Source: a virus
Strand: one strand, 5' to 3'
Virus record (IMG/VR): IMGVR_UViG_3300048837_000489
Span: 1 to 52,785 of that record
Length of the DNA: 52,785 nt
Of the stretch, positions 1,556 to 50,640 are shown in pieces (within the stretch, counting starts at the first letter, position 1; every line of letters starts with the position of its first letter). The notes beneath the pieces were generated by a model. That model was not told the DNA's origin. It was given only the letters and a program-made list of their open reading frames with translations, and searched no databases. A program made the position numbers and the translations under genes.

Positions 1556-4500
1556 TTACTCTTCCGCTTTTGGCCTACCTGATTCAATAATCGCGGGCAG
1601 GTCGTTTTTCAGTCCTTTCGCAACTCGAAGTGAATCGACAGCCCAATCGTGCTCCCAGGGATGAGAGCCCTGTCGTGTGTCGATTCGCTCGGAAGTAAGA
1701 GGCACAACATGATTGCTTAGCCGCAATTTGATCCCGTTCGGAGCAACATAGTATTTACTTCCCGATTCGCTCTTATATTCGAGCTTCCAGCCAGCAGAAA
1801 GAAGTTGCGATTCAACGTCTGATACAATTGCCTCGGTCTCTTTATCTTCGGCCTGTTCTTTGGCCATGTTTTTTGCGGCGGCTGCTTTAATTGCGTTTCT
1901 CTTGTCGGCATCTTCCTTGCCTTTGCCGACAATTGCTTCCATTAACTCTTCTGGCGTTACGCCAAGTTCCCTTGCGGATTGAGCAACCTTAGCCGCGAAC
2001 TTTTCTTTACTATGCTTGTTTCTCTGATTCGCAAGTCGCCTTGCTTCTGCGCTGACTGCCTTGTTTTTCTCCACAAATTCACCATCTTCGTTGCGAGGAT
2101 GTTTCTGTTCGAAATCCTCAGTAAATCTAGCAAACTCCGGCGACGGCTCAAACGGCGGCGGCGCGACCCATTCCCGCTCGCTGGGTGCAGTCCGATTCAG
2201 ATATTCCACGATTCGGCCTTCTCCGTTGAACTGTTCATCACGTACCATTCGCGCCCGCTCCCACCACGCCTGCGCCTCTTGCACGCCTCTCCTGGCAGCT
2301 TGCTCCACCGATACCGGCGTCCAAGAGCAGCGGCAGTTGTAGTCGAACGGCGGACGGAACTTAAACCACGTCGGATCGTCGGCCCGGTAGATGTTCGTCC
2401 CGTTCAATCCGTGCCGTTCCATCGCCGCATGTTCTGGCCGCACCCGCTGGTCAGTCGTGGCGAAGTACGCCCGATACGGGAAAGCATCGCTCACCATCGG
2501 CTGCTCTAGCGACTTGTTCGCGCCGTTGCTGAATGCCGCATTCACGTTGGTTCTAAAAATCGTTTCGATGTGGGCTTCCGACAATGGCCCCTCCACCTCC
2601 AACCGCGCGACAACCGCTTCCGTGAATTCCTCCAAGTTCGCACCCTTGGCGATGTTCTCCTGAAGGATGTCGCGGACGTCGGCCACTGCTTTAGCTTCCA
2701 GGTCGGACGTAATGCCAAACGCCCCGCGCCGCACTTCTTCGGCCACTTGGCGGTAGTCGTTCGACGTGAACACTTCGGAGGATTCCAGAACTTGCACCGC
2801 GTCATCCAGAACGGGGAAGAAGAGGTCGGGCGGCGGTTCGTCTGGGAAGAGTGCTGCCAGGGTAGGTGGCGCGGGTGGAATGCCGGGAGGGCCAACCGGC
2901 GCGGCGGGCGGCGTCAAGGCAGGCGGAACCGAGACAGCCACCTCAGCCGCGCCGGAAAGCTGTCCAGCGAGCATGGAGGCTTGCAAGTCGGAGGAAATGC
3001 CGCGCGAAAGGGATTCAATGAGGGTTTCGATGTCAGTCAGGAGCGCGAACGAATCGAACGTACCGAGCGGGTTGAACGGATCGGTTAATTCAGCCGTTTT
3101 TTTTTGAGGGTCGTCGAGGAGCGCACGGATCGCGTCGGCGGCGGCGCGGATGCGTGCACGAGCGGCGGCCGTGCCGATGGCGGTGATGTCGTCTTGGGAG
3201 GAGGGGGCGGGTTCTTCGAACCTCGTCGAAGTCCCCAGCAGCGGAATCGACGTGTGCGTTCCCGTCTTGTCGGAGAAAATCAACCGATCAAATACCGCCA
3301 CCTTGCCCTGCAAATCGTTCAGCGCGGCAGCGTAAGTCTCGCCCATGCCCGGCTTCACGTAGGCAATCGTGCAATGTGGCTTGTAGTCGGGATAGGTGTC
3401 AGTGCAGTGCAGTTTTTCACTGATTGCCGCATTGAGGTCGCGAAGTCCCTGGCTTTCGATTTCGATTTTTACAACGTCGTGCTCGCTGCCAGGGAAGGTG
3501 GAAGTCTTACCGAACGTCACCGCGATTGGCGCGGAGTCTTGGACTGCTCGCCGCACTTCCTCCGCATCGTTGGTGTGCAGGCCATACTTGACGGTGATGT
3601 GCGGGTTGAGTTCACGGCCGTCCTCTGCGAGGTCATCGAAGTTGATGCGGTCACCCACTTGGCGAAGTTGAAAAGCGAGTTCGCCGGGAAGGTTGAATTG
3701 CGTGCTGCTGAATTGGTGGATAGTGGGTTCGGTTTCACCTTCAGCGAATCGTTGTCCACCACCCGCCATCCTTCCCCCTGGCTGCATCGCTCCCGTCATC
3801 GCGCCGCCGCCTTGCATCCCTCCTGGCTGCCCATTCCCTCCCTGTCCCGGCTGCCCACCAATCGCCCCACCGCCCATCGGGCTTCCGCTCGCATCCTGCG
3901 CGAAACTCTCCACCAGACTCTTCGGCCGCAACTCAAAATCAGGATCGCTTCCCCAGTTCAACCACGCCACATCGCGAAGCAATTGCTCAATCGCTTGAAC
4001 GTAACAGGTCAACTCCTCATTGCAGACCGACAACAGCACCATGAACGGGATGCTTCGCCCTGAATACCCGCTCCCCGTCTCGCTGGCCTTCACCACCTCA
4101 ATCGGGATGTCCGCCGCGCGAAGAATGTCTTCGTCGATGCTCTCGCGCCACTGGAAAATGTCCGTCGCGCCGGGGATATGTTGCGGCGGGGTGTATCGCG
4201 TCAAATCCTTGCCGTTGTTGTCGATCAGCATCGGCATGGTGAGCGCGCCACCACTCAACCGATTCTCACCTTGCTGGCGTAGCACGTCGCGCCACGGCAC
4301 CTCTTGGCCGTTGATCGTCAGGTTCATGTTCGGCGGATACCAGAAAATGTCGCCGATGTACGCATCCTTAATCATGCGGAGTTGCGTCAGTTTCTCCGCA
4401 CCATGAGGCATCCACTTTTTGAACCATGGCGGCCACATGCGGCGCAGAACACCCTTGCCATAAGGTGAGCCATACTCCGCGTTGAACGTCAGCCACAAGG

Positions 4501-5041
4501 CGCGGGGGCCGTACAATTCACGGCCGCGAACCTTGAATCCACAAGGGTTGCCGGATTTCTTATTTCGTAGCGCCTTCATGTCCTCCGGCGCAAAATCCTT
4601 CAGCCCCTCGATCTCAATCATCCTGGTAGCCGGATTCATTTTGTAGGTCGGCTGCAACCCATTGAATCCCCACTTCTTCGTCGCCAGAATCTTGCCGCGA
4701 TTCAACTCCCAAATCACCCGCCATTGATCGTCGAGCCACTTTTTCACCTGCTCATTCTTGGCGGTGATCTCAACTTCCGCGACCGATAAAGCGGCGTTCC
4801 GGATGTTCAGACCAAACTCAACTACCGGATCGGTGTCGAGCATCATCTTGCCATCGAACAACGTATATGGCGGGATGCTGTTTACGATGGTGGCGTAGGG
4901 GTAGTTCGGAAGTCCCTGATAGCCTGCGGTCGGGTCGTGGCCGACGAGCGCGGCCTGCAACTTTTGCTGGCTGCTGTTGAGCTTCGGAAATTGGCTTTTA
5001 ACCCAATTGAACGGCGCGGCGAGGATTTCAGAAGCCTTCAT
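1556..5041 (-). CDS. Portal protein fused to 2H phosphoesterase and MuF-like head protein
   Basis: A 1161-residue multidomain virion protein. Residues 1-375 look like a phage portal (DUF935/Mu gp29 type), including the segment ETGSGYSGRSIP near 321-332. Residues 380-430 are a Gly/Gln-rich linker. Residues 440-605 carry the two signature motifs of 2H phosphoesterases, HITV (H481, T483) and HCTI (H556, T558), 75 residues apart. After a Pro-rich linker (705-735), residues 800-910 match the MuF/SPP1 gp7 minor-head domain, ending in the conserved YNCRC (C903, C905). Residues 920-1060 are charged and probably helical; 1075-1150 form a small unknown domain. The portal would form the DNA gate and the MuF part sits inside the capsid. 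The 2H part may act on RNA or cyclic oligonucleotides; its substrate is unknown. The gene overlaps the one upstream by ATGA. Confidence 0.85.
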   Translation of the reverse strand: MKASEILAAPFNWVKSQFPKLNSSQQKLQAALVGHDPTAGYQGLPNYPYATIVNSIPPYTLFDGKMMLDTDPVVEFGLNIRNAALSVAEVEITAKNEQVKKWLDDQWRVIWELNRGKILATKKWGFNGLQPTYKMNPATRMIEIEGLKDFAPEDMKALRNKKSGNPCGFKVRGRELYGPRALWLTFNAEYGSPYGKGVLRRMWPPWFKKWMPHGAEKLTQLRMIKDAYIGDIFWYPPNMNLTINGQEVPWRDVLRQQGENRLSGGALTMPMLIDNNGKDLTRYTPPQHIPGATDIFQWRESIDEDILRAADIPIEVVKASETGSGYSGRSIPFMVLLSVCNEELTCYVQAIEQLLRDVAWLNWGSDPDFELRPKSLVESFAQDASGSPMGGGAIGGQPGQGGNGQPGGMQGGGAMTGAMQPGGRMAGGGQRFAEGETEPTIHQFSSTQFNLPGELAFQLRQVGDRINFDDLAEDGRELNPHITVKYGLHTNDAEEVRRAVQDSAPIAVTFGKTSTFPGSEHDVVKIEIESQGLRDLNAAISEKLHCTDTYPDYKPHCTIAYVKPGMGETYAAALNDLQGKVAVFDRLIFSDKTGTHTSIPLLGTSTRFEEPAPSSQDDITAIGTAAARARIRAAADAIRALLDDPQKKTAELTDPFNPLGTFDSFALLTDIETLIESLSRGISSDLQASMLAGQLSGAAEVAVSVPPALTPPAAPVGPPGIPPAPPTLAALFPDEPPPDLFFPVLDDAVQVLESSEVFTSNDYRQVAEEVRRGAFGITSDLEAKAVADVRDILQENIAKGANLEEFTEAVVARLEVEGPLSEAHIETIFRTNVNAAFSNGANKSLEQPMVSDAFPYRAYFATTDQRVRPEHAAMERHGLNGTNIYRADDPTWFKFRPPFDYNCRCSWTPVSVEQAARRGVQEAQAWWERARMVRDEQFNGEGRIVEYLNRTAPSEREWVAPPPFEPSPEFARFTEDFEQKHPRNEDGEFVEKNKAVSAEARRLANQRNKHSKEKFAAKVAQSARELGVTPEELMEAIVGKGKEDADKRNAIKAAAAKNMAKEQAEDKETEAIVSDVESQLLSAGWKLEYKSESGSKYYVAPNGIKLRLSNHVVPLTSERIDTRQGSHPWEHDWAVDSLRVAKGLKNDLPAIIESGRPKAEE

Positions 5042-12181: not shown

Positions 12182-13345
12182 TTAGAACCCCGAAACCGTG
12201 GCATAGCACCACGAACCGGGGTTGTAGGGGACCGGGAAGAAGTTATCGAGGATGAAAGCCTCGTAGGTTGTCGGGTTGCTCTTGGTCGTCGTCCAAGCGG
12301 CCTGGCCGGTCTTCACCGAGATCGGGCCGTTGTCGTATTCCGCGATCGGTTCCGACGCGATGCAGCCTTCGAACACGTCCGGCCCGTTCACGTCAGGCAG
12401 GAAGAGCGCGTTGTTTTCGCCGATGTGATACTGCCAGGTGGCGGAATTCGGGTTGCCGATGTCGATGCCTTCATCGTTAATCATGAAGTCGATGCCAGGG
12501 CATTTCGTCAGGCGGCCCATTTTGACCATGAACGGCGAGCCGTCCGGGTTGACGCCGGTTTGACGCTCGAACACCTGGAACGGCGGATTGGCGATGCCCG
12601 CACCCACCGTCACATAGTCGTTGTTCGTGATGTTGTTCCACTGTTGCGAGCGAACCACGATCGTCTTCAAGTGCAAGCCACAGCGACGGAAGAGCGCGGC
12701 GTCGACTAGCTGGATTTGGTACGGGATGTCCGCACCCGTCGAATCCCATGGCACGTCGATGATGTCACCACCATTGATTGACGTTCCGTTGCCGTCGACG
12801 ATGTTCAGTTGATCCTTGTTGCCTGCTGGCATGTCAAACGAGACTTGTAGCAGCGCGTTGCTGCTGTCGTAGCTCGGATACCAGTTTTGGCCGAGTTCGT
12901 GGAAGTAAAGCGAGTCGCGGAGCATACCGACGAGGAGCGCGGTGCGCCAGTTCGTGGCCTCTTGCACCGGCTTTTGCATTTGGCGCCGGATGTACGATTC
13001 GCCGGCAATGTCCCGCATCTTGGGATCGTCGATTTTTGCGAAGTTGTGGATTTCCTCGTAAAGCAGCGACAATTGTTGGTGCATACGGGGATAGACGAAC
13101 GGCACTTCGCCGACCGGGTTGCGCGAGCGTTTCGCGGCCGGGCTGCCAGGGGCGGTGCCAAGCGCGACGGTTCGCACGTTGTTGAACACCTTGTAAGAGC
13201 CGGTGCGGCCGTGGCCGTAGTTCCGCTCATTCGGCCCGCCTGGTTGCATCCCGAAGAAGTTTAGGAATTGCGAACTGGCCGCGCTGATCCGACTGACAAC
13301 CTTCGTGAAGGTGATCGGCTGAAGGATTTGTTGAATCGAAGCCAT
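12182..13345 (-). CDS. Probable major capsid protein
   Basis: 387 residues, no signal or membrane segment. The N-terminus (MASIQQILQPITFTKVVSRI) is followed by an aromatic and Asn-rich region; MHQQLSLLYEEIHNF and RQMQKPVQEATNWRTALL form long helices like the E-loop/spine helix region of HK97-fold capsids. Size and position after a decoration protein and a protease/scaffold gene fit the capsid of lambda/Mu-like heads. No clear cleavage site is visible. The call rests on length, synteny and overall pattern. Confidence 0.75.
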   Translation of the reverse strand: MASIQQILQPITFTKVVSRISAASSQFLNFFGMQPGGPNERNYGHGRTGSYKVFNNVRTVALGTAPGSPAAKRSRNPVGEVPFVYPRMHQQLSLLYEEIHNFAKIDDPKMRDIAGESYIRRQMQKPVQEATNWRTALLVGMLRDSLYFHELGQNWYPSYDSSNALLQVSFDMPAGNKDQLNIVDGNGTSINGGDIIDVPWDSTGADIPYQIQLVDAALFRRCGLHLKTIVVRSQQWNNITNNDYVTVGAGIANPPFQVFERQTGVNPDGSPFMVKMGRLTKCPGIDFMINDEGIDIGNPNSATWQYHIGENNALFLPDVNGPDVFEGCIASEPIAEYDNGPISVKTGQAAWTTTKSNPTTYEAFILDNFFPVPYNPGSWCYATVSGF

Positions 13346-14351: not shown

Positions 14352-15590
14352 TTAGGACTTGTGGCGGGTGAACATTTCACCAACGACCTTTTCTGCTTCC
14401 TCATCCGAGAGCTTGTCGTCGCTTTTCGGCGGGTCGACTTCTTCGGATTCGTCGTCTTCAAAACGAACGGAGGGAGGGAGCGCGGCCAGGAACATGGCAG
14501 CCGCTTCGTTGACGGTGAGCGTTGGTGCTTCGCCGGTTTCGCTGAACTGAACTTTTTCGAGCTTGCCGAGAAGGGTCTTCTTCAACCCTGGGGGCAGCTT
14601 CATGGCCTTGACGCTGGCGACGGTCTTCTCGCGTTCGGCCTTCGTGCGCTCTTCAGCGAACTGCGTCACCTTGGCGTTGAGCTTGTCGCGGCTTTCTTTC
14701 AGCCGCTTGTTTTCGGCCTGGCTTGCTTCAATCGCCTTGCGGATGTGCGGTGGCAGCGTGGCCAATTCGTCTTCACTGAACGCAATCGGGTTGTCGGCCT
14801 CCTGCGTTTCCGGCGGGTCTTCGGCTTCTTCTTCCTTGGGTGCCGCTTCGGCGTCCGCTTTGGATTTGGTTTTGAGTGCCGCCAGGAGGATGTCCGCCGC
14901 GCCTTCGTTGTCGAATGTCCAATCCGCCGGAAGTTCAATACCGATGGTGCTGAACTGCGCAACGATGGCTTCCATCTTCATGTCAGCCGCGTCGTCTTTG
15001 GGCAGGTCAGGATTGACCGGTGACTCGTCGGTGCTGGTATCCGTTTCGCCGTTGGCGTTCTCGGTGCCATTGGTGCCTTCAACTTCGCTTTCGCCTGGTT
15101 TTTTTTCTTCGTCGTCCACGTAATCCTCCAGCGAAAATCGAGACACCCCGGCGGGGACTTCGACAAATGGGCCTTGGATCGGATTGCGCGGTTTCGGCGT
15201 CAGTGCGACGTGGCGAATGATCGAACCAAGTTCACCAATGCCCTCCGCGAAAAAGTTTTCGTGAAACTCGGGAGACGTGAAACGAATGGAGCCGGTCTTG
15301 AGTCCGTTGGCGGTTTCGGCGTCAGTGATGTCAAGCTCGTATTCGAGCCATCCGTCATCCGTCACTTGAAACCGTTTCGCCCAGCCCCGATTTCGCAAAG
15401 CTGATCGCGGGTCTTTCGCCTCTCCGATTGAGCCTTTCGCATCTACGTCGTCGTGAAAATCAATTACGGGAATCGACAGTCCGGCTTCGATCGCTCGGTT
15501 CGTGTTCTCCGCGTATTGCTTGAAACGCTCTACGGGATAATCACCGACACGATACTTTCCTGGCCGGAGTGCTTTTTGCCGAACAAGCAT
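14352..15590 (-). CDS. Putative prohead protease/scaffold (Mu gpI-like)
   Basis: 412 residues from ATG at 15590; the same frame is open to a TTG at 15653, so the true start is uncertain. Residues 1-130 have a protease-like layout (VIDFHDDVDAKGSIGEA, then TGSIRFTSPEFHENF and IIRHVALTPKPRNPIQGP), the last being close to the Mu gpI pattern that precedes NPIQGP. The C-terminal half is acidic, Glu/Lys-rich and helical (ESRDKLNAKVTQFAEERTKAE), as in internal scaffolds. Located before decoration and capsid genes. The catalytic residues were not identified with confidence. Confidence 0.7.
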   Translation of the reverse strand: MLVRQKALRPGKYRVGDYPVERFKQYAENTNRAIEAGLSIPVIDFHDDVDAKGSIGEAKDPRSALRNRGWAKRFQVTDDGWLEYELDITDAETANGLKTGSIRFTSPEFHENFFAEGIGELGSIIRHVALTPKPRNPIQGPFVEVPAGVSRFSLEDYVDDEEKKPGESEVEGTNGTENANGETDTSTDESPVNPDLPKDDAADMKMEAIVAQFSTIGIELPADWTFDNEGAADILLAALKTKSKADAEAAPKEEEAEDPPETQEADNPIAFSEDELATLPPHIRKAIEASQAENKRLKESRDKLNAKVTQFAEERTKAEREKTVASVKAMKLPPGLKKTLLGKLEKVQFSETGEAPTLTVNEAAAMFLAALPPSVRFEDDESEEVDPPKSDDKLSDEEAEKVVGEMFTRHKS

Positions 15591-15610
15591 GAGTAATTGA
15601 TAAGCCGAAA

Positions 15611-15640
15611 GTGGTGCATAATTGCGGAAGATTGCACCAC
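15611..15640. repeat. 8-bp inverted repeat at the divergent junction
   Basis: GTGGTGCA (15611-15618) and TGCACCAC (15633-15640) are perfect inverted copies 14 bp apart. They lie between the ATG of the protease/scaffold gene (15590) and the plus-strand gene at 15714. A perfect -35 box TTGACA follows on the plus strand (15647-15652), although the -10 region is poor. The repeat may be an operator for one or both directions. Confidence 0.5.
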
Positions 15641-15713
15641 TTAACTTTGACAATTGCGCACATTCTCTAAGACTTGCGCCCTAAAAGGCTGGCCAGAAGT
15701 GGCCGGAATTGTC

Positions 15714-17650: not shown

Positions 17651-20332
17651 CTAAAACCTAACCCCAGGAATCCCCTGCGGCTCCCAAAACGCATGGTCCA
17701 CCGCCACCGTCCCACTCCCGCCCGCCGTAACCTCAATCGCGGCGTAACTCGCCATATCCACCTGGTCGCACGTCTCCTCGTCCAACCCCTGCCAGCTAAG
17801 CCACTCGGCCTCTAGCGGCTGCTTCCATCCCGCGTCGTACTTCGGCAGAAACACCTCGCCGCGCTCCATCATGTTAAGCAGCGGCGCGGCCCGCGTCACC
17901 TTGTCCTTGCCGCCGGTGGCCGTGGTGCTGATCGGTAACTCGCCTTGGAGCATCGACACCGCCGCTTCGCCGTACTTCTCGTTCTCAATCAAGATTCGCG
18001 TCGGCTTCCATTCCTTGTGAATGTTGCGGATTCCTTGGAGCAAGCCAGGGAAATCTACCCTCGCTCGCCAGACGTGCCGGAGGATCAATTTCCTACCGAA
18101 TCGCGACGGCGGTTGATCCCAAACGCCCGCTACAGTCCAAGAGTGCGGCTTCCCCTTCGATTCCTTCGCCTTCTCGGCCGACGTGCCAGCCGGGTCGATG
18201 GTGATGAAGCGGCGGCAGTCGCGTTGGTCGATGAGTGCGATTACGTTTCCGCCGGAGTCGCGCGGCTCGATGTAATCGCCTTTCATGGTGAAGTATCGGA
18301 GCCATTCGTATTTGATGAGCCCGGCCACCGAAACAGACCAGTCGCCGTTCATCAATCGCAGGCGAGTAACCGGCGGAAGGTGGGACAGGTTTTTTGAATA
18401 CTCATCTTCATTGATCGCGGGGTTGTCCTTGATCTTCGAAGGCACAAACGCTCGCCCTTCCTGGAAGTACAAATCCTTGGGATTCCCCTCAAGCAAATCC
18501 TTTTCAGCTTCTGGCGAAATGAACCGGCCTTTCACAAACGCATGGCCCGCATTGCCAGGGTTCGAAGCGGATCGCACGCGGAGCGGTATCGGGTTGTCCT
18601 CTGTTTTTCGCAGGCGGGAGAACATGAAGAGGTAAACATTCGCGTCGTTCGCTTCGCCGTTTTGCTCGGATGGTAACGCGAATTCGGTTAGCTCGTCCCA
18701 GCCGATGAATTGAAACTCGGACGATGCGTAGCGGAACCGATCATCCGGGTTGTCGATGTAGCCGAACTGGATGATAGCGCCGGAGGGGAAGCGAAACATT
18801 TTCCGCGATTCGTTCCACTCCGCATCGCTGTTGTAAAGCCACGCCTTGGCGCGATCCATGATGCTGCCAGGGAGGGATAACCGTGGGAAGTCGCGGCGAA
18901 GGATGAGTGCGGCGTAGTTGGGGAGGTGCGCGTATTCGAGCGCTGCCATGAGGAGCGTATCGCTGTTGTGCGTCGGTATCATCGACCGGCCAGCAAGGTA
19001 GCAGTGCGATGGAGAATCGACTTGCACGCAGCGAACTGGAACCGATGGAACGCGAGTCACTTTTGTGATGTATCGGACAGAATGAGTGCCGCGGTAGCCG
19101 GATAGCTTTTGCCTTTCGAGTTTTCTTTGCAGGCGAAAGGCTGGTTTTTCCGCAACAAACTTAATTCTCCATTTCGGCCCAATCACTCGCCCGTTTAATT
19201 TGGCAACACCCTCTTTCGCATTAGCCTTGATTCCAAGCGATAGGATCAATTCCAAAACGCCATCGCGAAGTACTGGCGATGTTGTCGTGAATTCGCAATG
19301 GCCTTTCACGCAGGCATGGCCATCGGTATCCATGAGCCCTTGCAGAAGTGCCCAGCGATCATCTTCGCACGCGCGTAGATACTGCTCTGGAATGTGCTTG
19401 TTTTTCAAAAGACCTGTGATTCTCAAGGGGCGATACAGACCGAGGATTCCATAACCATAAGTACTTGAATGTTTAGTGACTTCATGGCCATGCTTGCGAA
19501 TTTCATCTATCAATTCTGGATCGTTGCAAGTGAATCCTGCACCGATGCTATGTCCATCGCCGAGCCACGCGCCAAGAACGTAGGGGTGAATCGGAAGATC
19601 GGACGTTGGCAACTGAAGAGCGCCGGCAACTTTTACGCTGTGATTCGTGCGGCCGTTATGGGTCAGTGTTTCAAGAATTTCGCAAGTCGTTTTCGGCGAT
19701 GACGTTGGCGGTTCTAAGACGGCATGTTCAATAGCTTGGTTGCGTTCGATCACCCAAGGCTTTTTTCCTGTCGATCTCGATTTGCGGATAGCCCTTCTCT
19801 TTGCACGGTACTCATCGGTTCGCCTGGTCGCTGCGTTTCTGTCCGCAAGTGTCAATGTGCTCCAAAGGTGTCCGCCATCGGCGATGATCGTGGAACCGTC
19901 CGAAAACTCCACTTCGAAGCAAGAGTTGTTGTGCATCACCTCAGAGCAGGCGAGCACCTCGCAAGGATTGCCGTCGTCGGCAAATAGAATATCACCCGGC
20001 TTCACGTCGCCCATTTGCACCCAGCCAGTAGGCGTCGGGAGCCAAGTATCGACGGCTAAGGCTTTCCCGCCTCCAGCCGCGCCGCCGAAGAATGCCTCTT
20101 GGTCGTCGATGTCGAGGAATAACTGCTGCTTCGGCCAGGGTTTATGAGGAGCGTACTTCGCCGTTCCCGTCACTCCCCTAGGAGCCAGCTTCGCCCGCGC
20201 CTCCATCTGCCGAATGATCGATTCCTGCTGGTCGATAGTGAACTGCTTCAACCACTCGTCTAGCTCGGATTTCTTCAGCGATAGCAGCAAGTTCAGCTTG
20301 CTGTTGCGCAGCTTCCACGGTGATGTTGACAT
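17651..20332 (-). CDS. terL: Terminase large subunit interrupted by an in-frame intein
   Basis: 893 residues. The host protein is split inside Walker A: FFGGAAGGGK (81-90) continues as SDTLLMAALEY at 457. Walker B is FIGWDEL (D546, E547). The C-terminal nuclease shows ITIDPAG (D713) and the late acidic pair near DQVDMASYA (D856, D859). It packages DNA by ATP-driven translocation and cuts concatemers. The intein (residues 91-456) must splice out for ATPase activity, because it separates the P-loop Lys from its Ser. The ATG at 20332 overlaps the upstream gene by 155 bases. A later start (for example M43) would still keep the ATPase and would remove most of the overlap. Confidence 0.9.
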   Translation of the reverse strand: MSTSPWKLRNSKLNLLLSLKKSELDEWLKQFTIDQQESIIRQMEARAKLAPRGVTGTAKYAPHKPWPKQQLFLDIDDQEAFFGGAAGGGKALAVDTWLPTPTGWVQMGDVKPGDILFADDGNPCEVLACSEVMHNNSCFEVEFSDGSTIIADGGHLWSTLTLADRNAATRRTDEYRAKRRAIRKSRSTGKKPWVIERNQAIEHAVLEPPTSSPKTTCEILETLTHNGRTNHSVKVAGALQLPTSDLPIHPYVLGAWLGDGHSIGAGFTCNDPELIDEIRKHGHEVTKHSSTYGYGILGLYRPLRITGLLKNKHIPEQYLRACEDDRWALLQGLMDTDGHACVKGHCEFTTTSPVLRDGVLELILSLGIKANAKEGVAKLNGRVIGPKWRIKFVAEKPAFRLQRKLERQKLSGYRGTHSVRYITKVTRVPSVPVRCVQVDSPSHCYLAGRSMIPTHNSDTLLMAALEYAHLPNYAALILRRDFPRLSLPGSIMDRAKAWLYNSDAEWNESRKMFRFPSGAIIQFGYIDNPDDRFRYASSEFQFIGWDELTEFALPSEQNGEANDANVYLFMFSRLRKTEDNPIPLRVRSASNPGNAGHAFVKGRFISPEAEKDLLEGNPKDLYFQEGRAFVPSKIKDNPAINEDEYSKNLSHLPPVTRLRLMNGDWSVSVAGLIKYEWLRYFTMKGDYIEPRDSGGNVIALIDQRDCRRFITIDPAGTSAEKAKESKGKPHSWTVAGVWDQPPSRFGRKLILRHVWRARVDFPGLLQGIRNIHKEWKPTRILIENEKYGEAAVSMLQGELPISTTATGGKDKVTRAAPLLNMMERGEVFLPKYDAGWKQPLEAEWLSWQGLDEETCDQVDMASYAAIEVTAGGSGTVAVDHAFWEPQGIPGVRF
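18965..20062 (-). mobile_element. Class 3-type intein with LAGLIDADG homing endonuclease in terL
   Basis: 366 residues between K90 and S457. The first residue is Ala, not Cys or Ser. Block B has GGHLWS (W157), block F has VRCVQV (C435), and the C-terminus is IPTHN followed by Ser. This is the Trp-Cys-Thr (WCT) set known from class 3 inteins, in which an internal Cys starts splicing. The middle carries two LAGLIDADG-type motifs, LGAWLGDG (253-260) and LLQGLMDTDG (329-338). Their conserved Asp residues are present, so the endonuclease may be active. Ends were checked at the codon level. Confidence 0.88.
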
Positions 20333-25570: not shown

Positions 25571-25641
25571 CAGCGGCGGTGGGAGTCGAACCCACTCGGA
25601 CGGGATTGAAAGCCCGCTGCGGTCCCCATCGCTTCGCCGCC
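25571..25641 (-). tRNA. tRNA-like gene with 8-base anticodon loop
   Basis: 71 bases. Acceptor arms GGCGGCG and CGCCGCT pair over 7 positions (one G-U) followed by discriminator G. The T arm is GTGGG-TTCGACT-CCCAC, canonical. The D arm is weak (3 bp plus a mismatch) with two G residues in the loop. The anticodon stem pairs as GCGGG with CCCGT, which leaves an 8-base loop CTTTCAAT. This reads as UUC (Glu) or UCA (stop codon UGA) depending on register. No CCA is encoded, and position 8 is A instead of T. It may be an unusual functional tRNA or a decaying one. Confidence 0.6.
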
Positions 25642-48691: not shown

Positions 48692-49264
48692 CTACGATCT
48701 GCTTACAAATCGCCGAGGCGTTTCAAAGCCAAGTTCGGTTGTTTCGAGATGTTCAATTCGTCGCGTTTTGTGGTGACGGCGCGCCGACATTTGATTCAAG
48801 CTGTCCGGGTGAAGGTCGAATCGGAGAAGGCGGACAAGTTCGTGTTTTGTAATGTCACGAACAAATAAGCTTCCATCGCTTCGAAATCGTCCCCATTTAA
48901 TCTGGCTGTCATCTGGTGCGCGGCCGGTGAAAATCAAGACGCTCACGCCAAAGTGCCATACCGCTCGCATTGCTTTTCCGCCGACCATCATGAGCGACTT
49001 TTTGCCTTGCTTAGCTTGGAAAAACTGGTGCTGAAACCATAACGATTCGTGTTGAGAAGTCGTCAGGTTTGTGCTGAACGTCTTCACTTCCAGGAACATC
49101 ATGTAATTGATTTCTCGACTTCCAACCGAATCAATTTCTGGCTTATATCGGTGAATCACCCAATCAATATCACTGGCAACGAAGTGCTGCGAGCTAAGTT
49201 CAGGCTGGCAGCGAAGCCATGCTCCAAACGGTGAATCGTTGCCATCCCTCCGGTGAATTGTCAT
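48692..49264 (-). CDS. Putative PD-(D/E)XK-type nuclease, partner of methyltransferase
   Basis: 190 residues from ATG at 49264, sharing ATGA with the stop of the methyltransferase gene. Residues 30-65 contain FVASDIDWVIHRYK followed by NYMMFLEVKTFSTN, giving a D...ExK pair as in PD-(D/E)XK nucleases. It also has WFQHQFFQAKQGKK. The product may be a restriction endonuclease for the methyltransferase or an independent enzyme. Catalytic role is inferred from the motif only. Confidence 0.65.
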   Translation of the reverse strand: MTIHRRDGNDSPFGAWLRCQPELSSQHFVASDIDWVIHRYKPEIDSVGSREINYMMFLEVKTFSTNLTTSQHESLWFQHQFFQAKQGKKSLMMVGGKAMRAVWHFGVSVLIFTGRAPDDSQIKWGRFRSDGSLFVRDITKHELVRLLRFDLHPDSLNQMSARRHHKTRRIEHLETTELGFETPRRFVSRS

Positions 49265-50526
49265 TGAACCCTCCATACAACGATCTCTCGCGTTAATACC
49301 AAGCATTGCTTGGCGTCCTTCGCCCACTCAACCATTTGTGCGTTACATTGCTGGGATTCGTAGGGAACGCTGTATCGCATCTCCACTGGCAGCCTCACCG
49401 CTCGTAGCATGTCGCTGACGTGATCGATGAATTCGCGGTTGGGAGACTTCCACTGCGTTGGCTGGATGATGAGCGCGATGTACGCGCCGCTTAGCTTCTT
49501 AGCGAAGTCGCTAATGATGCCAGTCAGGGACTTGTTGAATTCGTCCAGCGGCATGTTTGCGAGGTCGGTTGGATCGTTGCTGTACTGGCCTTCCGCCTGC
49601 TTCCAATAAGGTGGATCGAGGTAGACGAGTTTCACATCTTTCCACTGCGGCGGTTTCGGTAGTCCGCTCGTTAAGTCGTGAGTGCGAATCTCTTTTTCGC
49701 GTTCCACGATTGGCTTGCGATCACTGACGAAGTATCGACGCAAACGCTTCTTGCAGATGTCAATAGTCGAGCCACCACCCGCGAACGGATCGACGACGAC
49801 ATCAAAAGGCGACGTGTAGAGATACAGCAAGTTATCGAGCCATCGCACTTCCGAATTGCCGAAGTGCGATGAGCCGGAAGTCTTCTCTTGCTGCTTCCAG
49901 ATGTTGTAGATGGGTGGCGTGAAGTCGGTCGCGTGTTCAGCGGCGGCGCGTTGAGGTTTGTTCGCTTTTTCCAGTTCTGTAAAAACCGAACAAACTTCGC
50001 TCAGTTGTGCCTTGCTGATGTTTTCGCTTTCCGCAATTTCATCAAGCGTCCAGCACGCGAGCCACTTATCGAAGATGCGATTATTCCGCTTCTCCTTCGT
50101 GTCCTTATCAATGCGCGACAACCACGAAGCAATTGTTGAATCGCTTACCGAAAGAATCTTGGCAAGCTGCTTCTTCTTCTCGCTGCGATCCTTCTCCGGC
50201 GTTCCGTTGTAAATCTTGAACGCCATGTCCTTCTTATCCGCTTGGCTTAATTGCAAGCCGTGCGTGGCGTTCGTCTCAATCGCCTTTTCGAGCAAGTCGG
50301 AATCGCTGGACGTCTTGACGATGATGGCTTCGATCTCATCGACGCCGTTCTTCTTATGAGCGGTCCAACGATGCCAGCCGTCGATTAATTCTTTGTTCTG
50401 GTTGACCGTGATCGGCGGAAGAACGCTAAGGTCTTCTGCATACTTCTGTACCGTGGTCGCGCTCGTTTCGATGCGCGGGTACAGGTCTTCACGAAATACA
50501 ACGTCGATGACCTTGATCTTGGCCAT
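49261..50526 (-). CDS. ParB/Srx-type domain fused to DNA adenine/cytosine N-methyltransferase
   Basis: 421 residues from ATG at 50526 (MAKIKVIDVVFRED). Residues 10-65 are a ParB/sulfiredoxin-like domain (LYPRIETSATTVQKYAEDLSVLPPITVNQNKELIDGWHRWTAHKKNG), followed by a helical HTH region. Residues 225-285 hold the SAM motif DPFAGGGST, and later YLDPPYW (motif IV). The C-terminal part is a beta-rich target recognition region. It modifies DNA. The nuclease gene overlaps its end, so a restriction-modification-type unit is possible. A promoter and operator lie upstream (50641-50670). Confidence 0.88.
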   Translation of the reverse strand: MAKIKVIDVVFREDLYPRIETSATTVQKYAEDLSVLPPITVNQNKELIDGWHRWTAHKKNGVDEIEAIIVKTSSDSDLLEKAIETNATHGLQLSQADKKDMAFKIYNGTPEKDRSEKKKQLAKILSVSDSTIASWLSRIDKDTKEKRNNRIFDKWLACWTLDEIAESENISKAQLSEVCSVFTELEKANKPQRAAAEHATDFTPPIYNIWKQQEKTSGSSHFGNSEVRWLDNLLYLYTSPFDVVVDPFAGGGSTIDICKKRLRRYFVSDRKPIVEREKEIRTHDLTSGLPKPPQWKDVKLVYLDPPYWKQAEGQYSNDPTDLANMPLDEFNKSLTGIISDFAKKLSGAYIALIIQPTQWKSPNREFIDHVSDMLRAVRLPVEMRYSVPYESQQCNAQMVEWAKDAKQCLVLTREIVVWRVQ

Positions 50527-50640
50527 AAGGCGCAATCCTTGCCGGTGAGAGTCACGCGACAACAGCCGAGAACGGCTAAGAGTCGCAGAAGCTTTTTTCA
50601 TTCGTCAGGCTTGGCTACCACACCAAACCCAACGCGAGCA

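What the first reader, a model, noticed from the sequence alone, without database searches (positions are those of the whole stretch)
3240..3720. 2H phosphoesterase domain inside a portal-MuF virion fusion
Between portal and MuF domains of one 1161-residue protein lie the two 2H signature motifs HITV (H481) and HCTI (H556). Enzymes with this fold cleave 2'-5' linkages or cyclic nucleotides, and some phage members disarm CBASS signalling. A copy built into the portal would place the enzyme in the virion, possibly for entry with the DNA. I know of no described example of this combination.
Basis: partly seen in the sequence, partly recalled or inferred. Interest (0 to 1): 0.75.

Follow-up and report, generated by a model that had tools for sequence, protein, structure and literature searches.

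The report
Phage portal carrying a 2H phosphoesterase
A tailed phage has fused an RNA/nucleotide-cutting enzyme domain between two parts of its DNA-gateway (portal) protein; it is probably an anti-defence enzyme carried in the virus head, and fusions of this general kind were already predicted in print in 2017.

Summary
Gene 1556-5041(-) encodes 1161 aa: portal (about 60-385), 2H phosphoesterase (440-603), MuF (about 788-906), with predicted-disordered linkers on both sides of the 2H domain. The 2H domain passes Pfam PF13563 (1e-13). AlphaFold2 models it at pLDDT 93, and Foldseek returns 2H enzymes. H481, T483, H556 and T558 are invariant in 57 homologues. Two other contigs carry the same gene.

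The architecture is recurrent. In 115 non-redundant 2H domains, 22 sit behind a portal, from four Pfam portal families; the tree needs 13 changes of that label. Portal-2H-MuF occurs in two further phage lineages, and one origin for all of them is rejected (p-AU 0.004). Related portals carry other cargo in the same slot (topoisomerase IB, zeta toxin) or none.

The explicit three-domain order may be unremarked; the kind is known. The 2H family is separate from Acb1 and ThpR in the tree, so the substrate is unknown. A portal-anchored enzyme stays in the capsid unless cleaved off, so 'entry with the DNA' is undemonstrated. Most likely: a head-targeted counter-defence hydrolase.

The parts
1556..5041 (-). 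portal-2H-MuF fusion gene, 1161 aa
3887..4864 (-). portal domain, residues about 60-385 (N-terminal 59 residues mostly low confidence)
   Evidence: Portal_Mu 2.6e-4; 26% identity to L020, 55% to L166; full-length model matches solved portals, best 1.1e-9
3728..3886 (-). linker 1, Gly/Gln-rich, residues 386-438, predicted disordered
   Evidence: pLDDT <50; sequence
3233..3724 (-). 2H phosphoesterase domain, residues 440-603
   Evidence: PF13563 1.1e-13; pLDDT 93.3; Foldseek to 2H enzymes
3590..3601 (-). first HxT motif HITV, residues 481-484 (H481, T483)
   Evidence: invariant in 57 homologues
3365..3376 (-). second HxT motif HCTI, residues 556-559 (H556, T558)
   Evidence: invariant in 57 homologues
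2708..3232 (-). linker 2, residues 604-778, Ala/Pro-rich, mostly predicted disordered
2324..2680 (-). MuF domain, residues 788-906
   Evidence: PF04233 9.6e-14; TIGR01641 2e-15
1559..2251 (-). C-terminal extension, residues 931-1161, weak DUF7028
   Evidence: DUF7028 5.8e-4 at 1058-1103; lower GC3, 0.47
14352..15653 (-). predicted head maturation protease, candidate for releasing domains
   Evidence: phrog_976 5.1e-7
12182..13345 (-). major head protein
   Evidence: phrog_29 5.1e-4
17651..20332 (-). terminase large subunit
   Evidence: phrog_979 1.4e-51

Best explanation
The protein is a portal-headed polyvalent protein of a tailed phage. SHOWN by computation: the N-terminal part has the portal fold; a 2H phosphoesterase domain with an intact HxT/HxT tetrad follows on a disordered tether; a second long linker leads to a MuF domain. 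INFERRED: twelve subunits form the portal ring, and the C-terminal cargo is drawn into the procapsid interior, as SPP1 gp7 (MuF) is by its portal. The 2H domain then hydrolyses a 2',3'-cyclic-phosphate-type or cyclic oligonucleotide substrate by metal-free acid-base catalysis with the two histidines, and its biological role is to blunt a nucleotide-signalled defence of the host. Because a portal ring stays in the capsid, the domain can act (a) in the producing cell on newly made, unassembled or procapsid-bound protein, or (b) in the next host only if proteolysis, for example by the phage's head protease, frees it for ejection.
For: Domain order and fold. Catalytic residues invariant in 57 diverse homologues and purifying selection on the domain (dN/dS 0.157, window vs L003). 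Between window and L089, which are syntenic, 2H keeps 66% identity while portal and MuF keep 27% and 35%, so the domain is strongly conserved. Repeated fusion to portals of four Pfam families, with 13 label changes on the tree. Other effector-like cargo occupies the same slot in related portals: TopoIB in L166, zeta toxin in L176. Best sequence-profile match among solved structures is Acb1 (9q2g 5.6e-11; FBB1 9.3e-8), and the YPDYxPHxT motif is shared with FBB1 Acb1. No RNA ligase, polynucleotide kinase or KptA among the window ORFs scanned, which weakens RNA repair. SPP1 gp7 is targeted to the procapsid interior by the portal (PMC6316719).
Against: The substrate is unknown. The tree puts the family outside both Acb1 and ThpR. 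By alignment, the Acb1 base-stacking Tyr12 is Ser here and the adenine-reading Glu141 is not matched (the C-terminal part of that alignment is uncertain). The host and its defences are unknown. Nothing shows that the protein is in the virion, cleaved or ejected. Twelve fused MuF copies would differ from SPP1's one to two.
Confidence: 0.5

Rival explanations
1. RNA enzyme: the 2H domain acts as an RNase (Usb1-like) or processes 2',3'-cyclic phosphate ends of RNA in the host, for example on tRNA or CRISPR RNA, rather than on a defence signal.
For: Foldseek's best PDB hits include drCPDase (2.4e-6) and Usb1 (4e-6 to 1.9e-5). Iyer et al. 2017 prefer RNase by analogy with PBECR-MuF/portal fusions. 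In relatives 2H sits with PBECR3 (L035), a CCA/polyA polymerase (L043) or an RNase_T domain (L048).
Against: Closest solved sequence relatives are Acb1; no RNA repair partners in the window ORFs scanned.
Confidence: 0.3
2. Structural or binding role only: the 2H fold is a domesticated, catalytically idle decoration of the portal vertex.
For: The 2H fold has been reused non-enzymatically elsewhere (own knowledge, for example AKAP18); location in a virion structural protein.
Against: All four catalytic residues invariant in 57 homologues, including solo forms; disordered tethers rather than an ordered interface; related portals do without it (L167, L188).
Confidence: 0.1
3. Annotation or assembly artefact: a chance motif pair or a chimeric contig.
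For: None found; the Portal_Mu match is below its cut-off.
Against: Strong profile match, confident fold, same gene in two other contigs, recurrence in unrelated phages.
Confidence: 0.01

Closest known systems
2H domains fused to MuF or portal domains in polyvalent proteins (Iyer et al. 2017, PMC5512222; Iyer et al. 2022, PMC9503650)
   Same: 2H phosphoesterase in one polypeptide with portal or MuF; predicted head packaging and injection, predicted RNase or nucleotide-signal degradation
   Different: The text names MuF or portal fusions; whether their Fig. 5B shows portal-2H-MuF in one chain could not be seen
Acb1, anti-CBASS 2H nuclease (T4 57B, FBB1; Hobbs et al. 2022, PMC9117128)
   Same: HxT/HxT tetrad, YPDYxPHxT motif (FBB1), best profile match among solved structures
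   Different: Acb1 is a small solo protein; here 22% or less identity, separate clade, Tyr12 not kept, Glu141 not matched in the alignment
ThpR/LigT RNA 2',3'-cyclic phosphodiesterases (TIGR02258)
   Same: Same fold and catalytic residues
   Different: 17.8 bits against a cut-off of 65.7; separate in the tree
MuF polymorphic toxins of temperate phages (PMC5576092) and SPP1 gp7
   Same: MuF domain used to place cargo in the head
   Different: There the cargo is at the C-terminus of a separate MuF protein; here the cargo lies between portal and MuF in one chain

Membership tests
2H phosphoesterase superfamily | Two HxS/T motifs in the duplicated 2H fold | tested here: met
   pocket geometry not measured directly
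2H phosphoesterase superfamily | Metal-independent phosphoesterase activity | not testable with these tools
   Needs biochemistry
Acb1 (PF23474) | Match to the Acb1 profile at the curated cut-off | tested here: inconclusive
   27.1 bits for the domain alone and 21.2 for the whole protein, cut-off 27
Acb1 (PF23474) | Groups with T4/FBB1 Acb1 in a tree | tested here: not met
   Three Acb1 sequences form a separate starred clade
Acb1 (PF23474) | Hydrolysis of CBASS cyclic oligonucleotides | not testable with these tools
   Needs biochemistry
ThpR/LigT (TIGR02258) | Score above curated cut-off | tested here: not met
   17.8 vs 65.7 bits
Phage portal (Portal_Mu type) | Portal fold and profile match | tested here: met
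   Weak profile (2.6e-4, below cut-off) but clear relatives L020, L166 and Foldseek portals to 1.1e-9
MuF (PF04233) | Profile match above cut-off | tested here: met
   52.5 vs 29.6 bits
Polyvalent protein of a phage head | Several effector/structural domains in one chain, encoded among late genes | tested here: met
Polyvalent protein of a phage head | Packaged in the virion and injected | not testable with these tools
   Needs virion proteomics

The most novel reading that the evidence does not exclude
The portal C-terminus is a general effector slot, and the 2H enzyme is held at the portal vertex on purpose: it is not injected but acts in the producing cell, at the assembling head, on nucleotide signals raised by head assembly, so that the phage carries a built-in, position-specific anti-signalling enzyme.
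Probability: 0.15. Interest if true: 0.7.

Novelty: new member of a known kind. Interest (0 to 1): 0.4.

Why it matters
If the domain degrades defence signals, phages would have a way to tie an anti-defence enzyme to an essential virion part. The repeated, independent fusion to unrelated portals (13 label changes; three-domain order in three lineages) makes the published but untested idea directly testable, and it points to the portal C-terminus as a place to look for unknown phage effectors.

Tried and rejected
Chance motif or chimeric contig: rejected. Direct membership in ThpR or Acb1: ThpR failed the cut-off, Acb1 failed the tree test. Recent horizontal swap of 2H between window and L089, suggested by 66% vs 27% identity: not supported, since window, L003, L089 and L166 2H domains form one 100/99 clade, all on related Mu-type portals; slower evolution of 2H is enough, though a swap within this clade is not excluded. 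Internal start to make a separate 2H-MuF product: no spaced Shine-Dalgarno site found at residues 380-800. First genome-contig scan found no relatives; the second found ten, one with a portal-2H gene in a Gemmataceae genome, L078. In the full-length alignment A6 the six MuF-only rows were misplaced, so the MuF part of that model is poor (pLDDT about 30-80) and was not used as evidence. Search for RNA repair partners: none. The 2H locus sample is biased towards relatives of the query, so 22 of 115 is not a frequency in nature.

Full report
Observation. The ORF at 1556-5041 on the minus strand codes for 1161 residues. The motifs are at the stated places (HITV from 481, HCTI from 556). Pfam finds 2_5_RNA_ligase2 (477-565, 6.7e-13; 1.1e-13 for the domain alone), MuF (788-906, 9.6e-14) and a sub-threshold Portal_Mu match (66-209, 2.6e-4). 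PHROGs agrees: portal, 'RNA ligase', minor head protein.

Fold. With an alignment of 57 related domains the 2H domain is predicted at mean pLDDT 93.3, pTM 0.86. Foldseek against the PDB returns drCPDase, Usb1, poxvirus cGAMP PDE, plant CPDase, Acb1 and LigT, all 2H enzymes. The full-length model shows a confident portal part and 2H part, joined by segments of pLDDT below 50 (386-438; most of 604-778). Its best Foldseek hits are portals (1.1e-9), including phage Mu (5.4e-6). The MuF part of the model is poor, since six MuF rows were misaligned.

Is it an active enzyme? H481, T483, H556 and T558 are invariant in all 57 domains, which include solo proteins of large phages, giant proteins and head proteins. 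Window versus L003 gives dN/dS 0.157 in the domain. I take catalysis as very likely (inference).

How common is the arrangement? Scans of viral contigs and bacterial genomes gave relatives. Pfam shows 2H behind portals of the PF04860, PF06074, PF05136 and PF06381 families (the PF05136 matches are below that family's cut-off), behind a prohead protease (L019), before MuF (L047), and with PBECR3, NUDIX and polyA polymerase domains in other proteins. By phmmer, 21 of 117 non-redundant ORFs hold a portal and 7 a MuF. L136 and L161 have portal-2H-MuF with PF04860 portals (the MuF match of L136, 26.9 bits, is just below the cut-off of 29.6). On a tree of 115 domains the portal label (22 rows) needs 13 changes and the three-domain order 3; one clade for the four three-domain rows is rejected, p-AU 0.004. 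The tree cannot tell gain from loss, and the sample is biased to the query's kin.

Origin of the window gene. L089 is syntenic: its portal-2H gene (640 aa) is followed after 1 base by a separate MuF gene. Neighbouring genes keep 27-38% identity but 2H keeps 66%. The window gene therefore looks like the same pair joined in frame. L166, with a 55% identical portal, has portal-2H-DUF5661-topoisomerase IB; L176 has a zeta-toxin domain; L167 and L188 end shortly after the portal. By eye, L175/L181 carry ParB-like and L182 methylase-like sequence, without Pfam support. The portal C-terminus in this family thus behaves as a cargo slot.

What does it cut? The best sequence-profile matches among solved structures are Acb1 proteins (9q2g 5.6e-11, FBB1 9.3e-8), ahead of LigT-like proteins. 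FBB1 Acb1 shares YPDYxPHxT. But Acb1, ThpR-like and this family form three separate groups in the tree. Of the T4 Acb1 base-contact residues (PMC9117128), positions of W74, F107 and W147 align with F, Y and F here, Y12 with S, and E141 with A (the C-terminal part is uncertain). So the chemistry is probably Acb1-like, and the specificity is open. No RNA ligase, kinase or KptA family was found among 58 window ORFs.

Where does it act? MuF protein gp7 of SPP1 is brought inside the procapsid by the portal, and MuF toxins are proposed to enter the host (PMC6316719, PMC5576092). A portal ring, however, stays in the capsid after ejection (own knowledge). Either the 2H domain acts in the producing cell, or it is cut free; the window encodes a head protease candidate (phrog_976). 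Neither is shown.

Known or new? Iyer et al. 2017 describe 2H domains fused to MuF or portal domains and propose RNase or counter-signalling roles; Iyer et al. 2022 repeat this with packaging and injection. Whether the exact three-domain chain was drawn could not be checked, as figures are not held. I class it as a new member of a known kind, with a useful new measure of how often it arose.

Noticed in passing
window 25571-25641 (-): tRNA-like gene (Rfam 39.5 bits) for which ARAGORN gives a four-base anticodon 'ttca'; read as tca it would pair with UGA. Genes of the window do end in TGA.
   Followed up: partly
window 49261-50601 (-): Gene with both ParB-like and DNA methyltransferase matches in PHROGs.
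   Followed up: no
window 1559-2251 (-), residues 931-1161: C-terminal part has much lower GC3 (0.47 vs 0.67-0.75 in the domains) and higher dS against L003 (0.40 vs 0.18 in the portal): perhaps a different history.
   Followed up: no
window 1-20332: The portal gene lies downstream of the other head genes (terminase, protease, major head protein, connector) rather than next to the terminase; L089 shares the local order.
   Followed up: partly
L166:5851-9198: Portal fused to 2H, DUF5661 and a eukaryote-type topoisomerase IB catalytic core (6.8e-22) in one 1116-aa chain.
   Followed up: no
L003:2496-3092, 2H domain: Natural insertion of about ten residues in a 2H loop compared with the window.
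   Followed up: no
L182, L185, L186, L191 (about 2350-2390 aa): Giant portal-headed proteins; L182 carries methylase-like sequence by eye; cargo otherwise unidentified.
   Followed up: no
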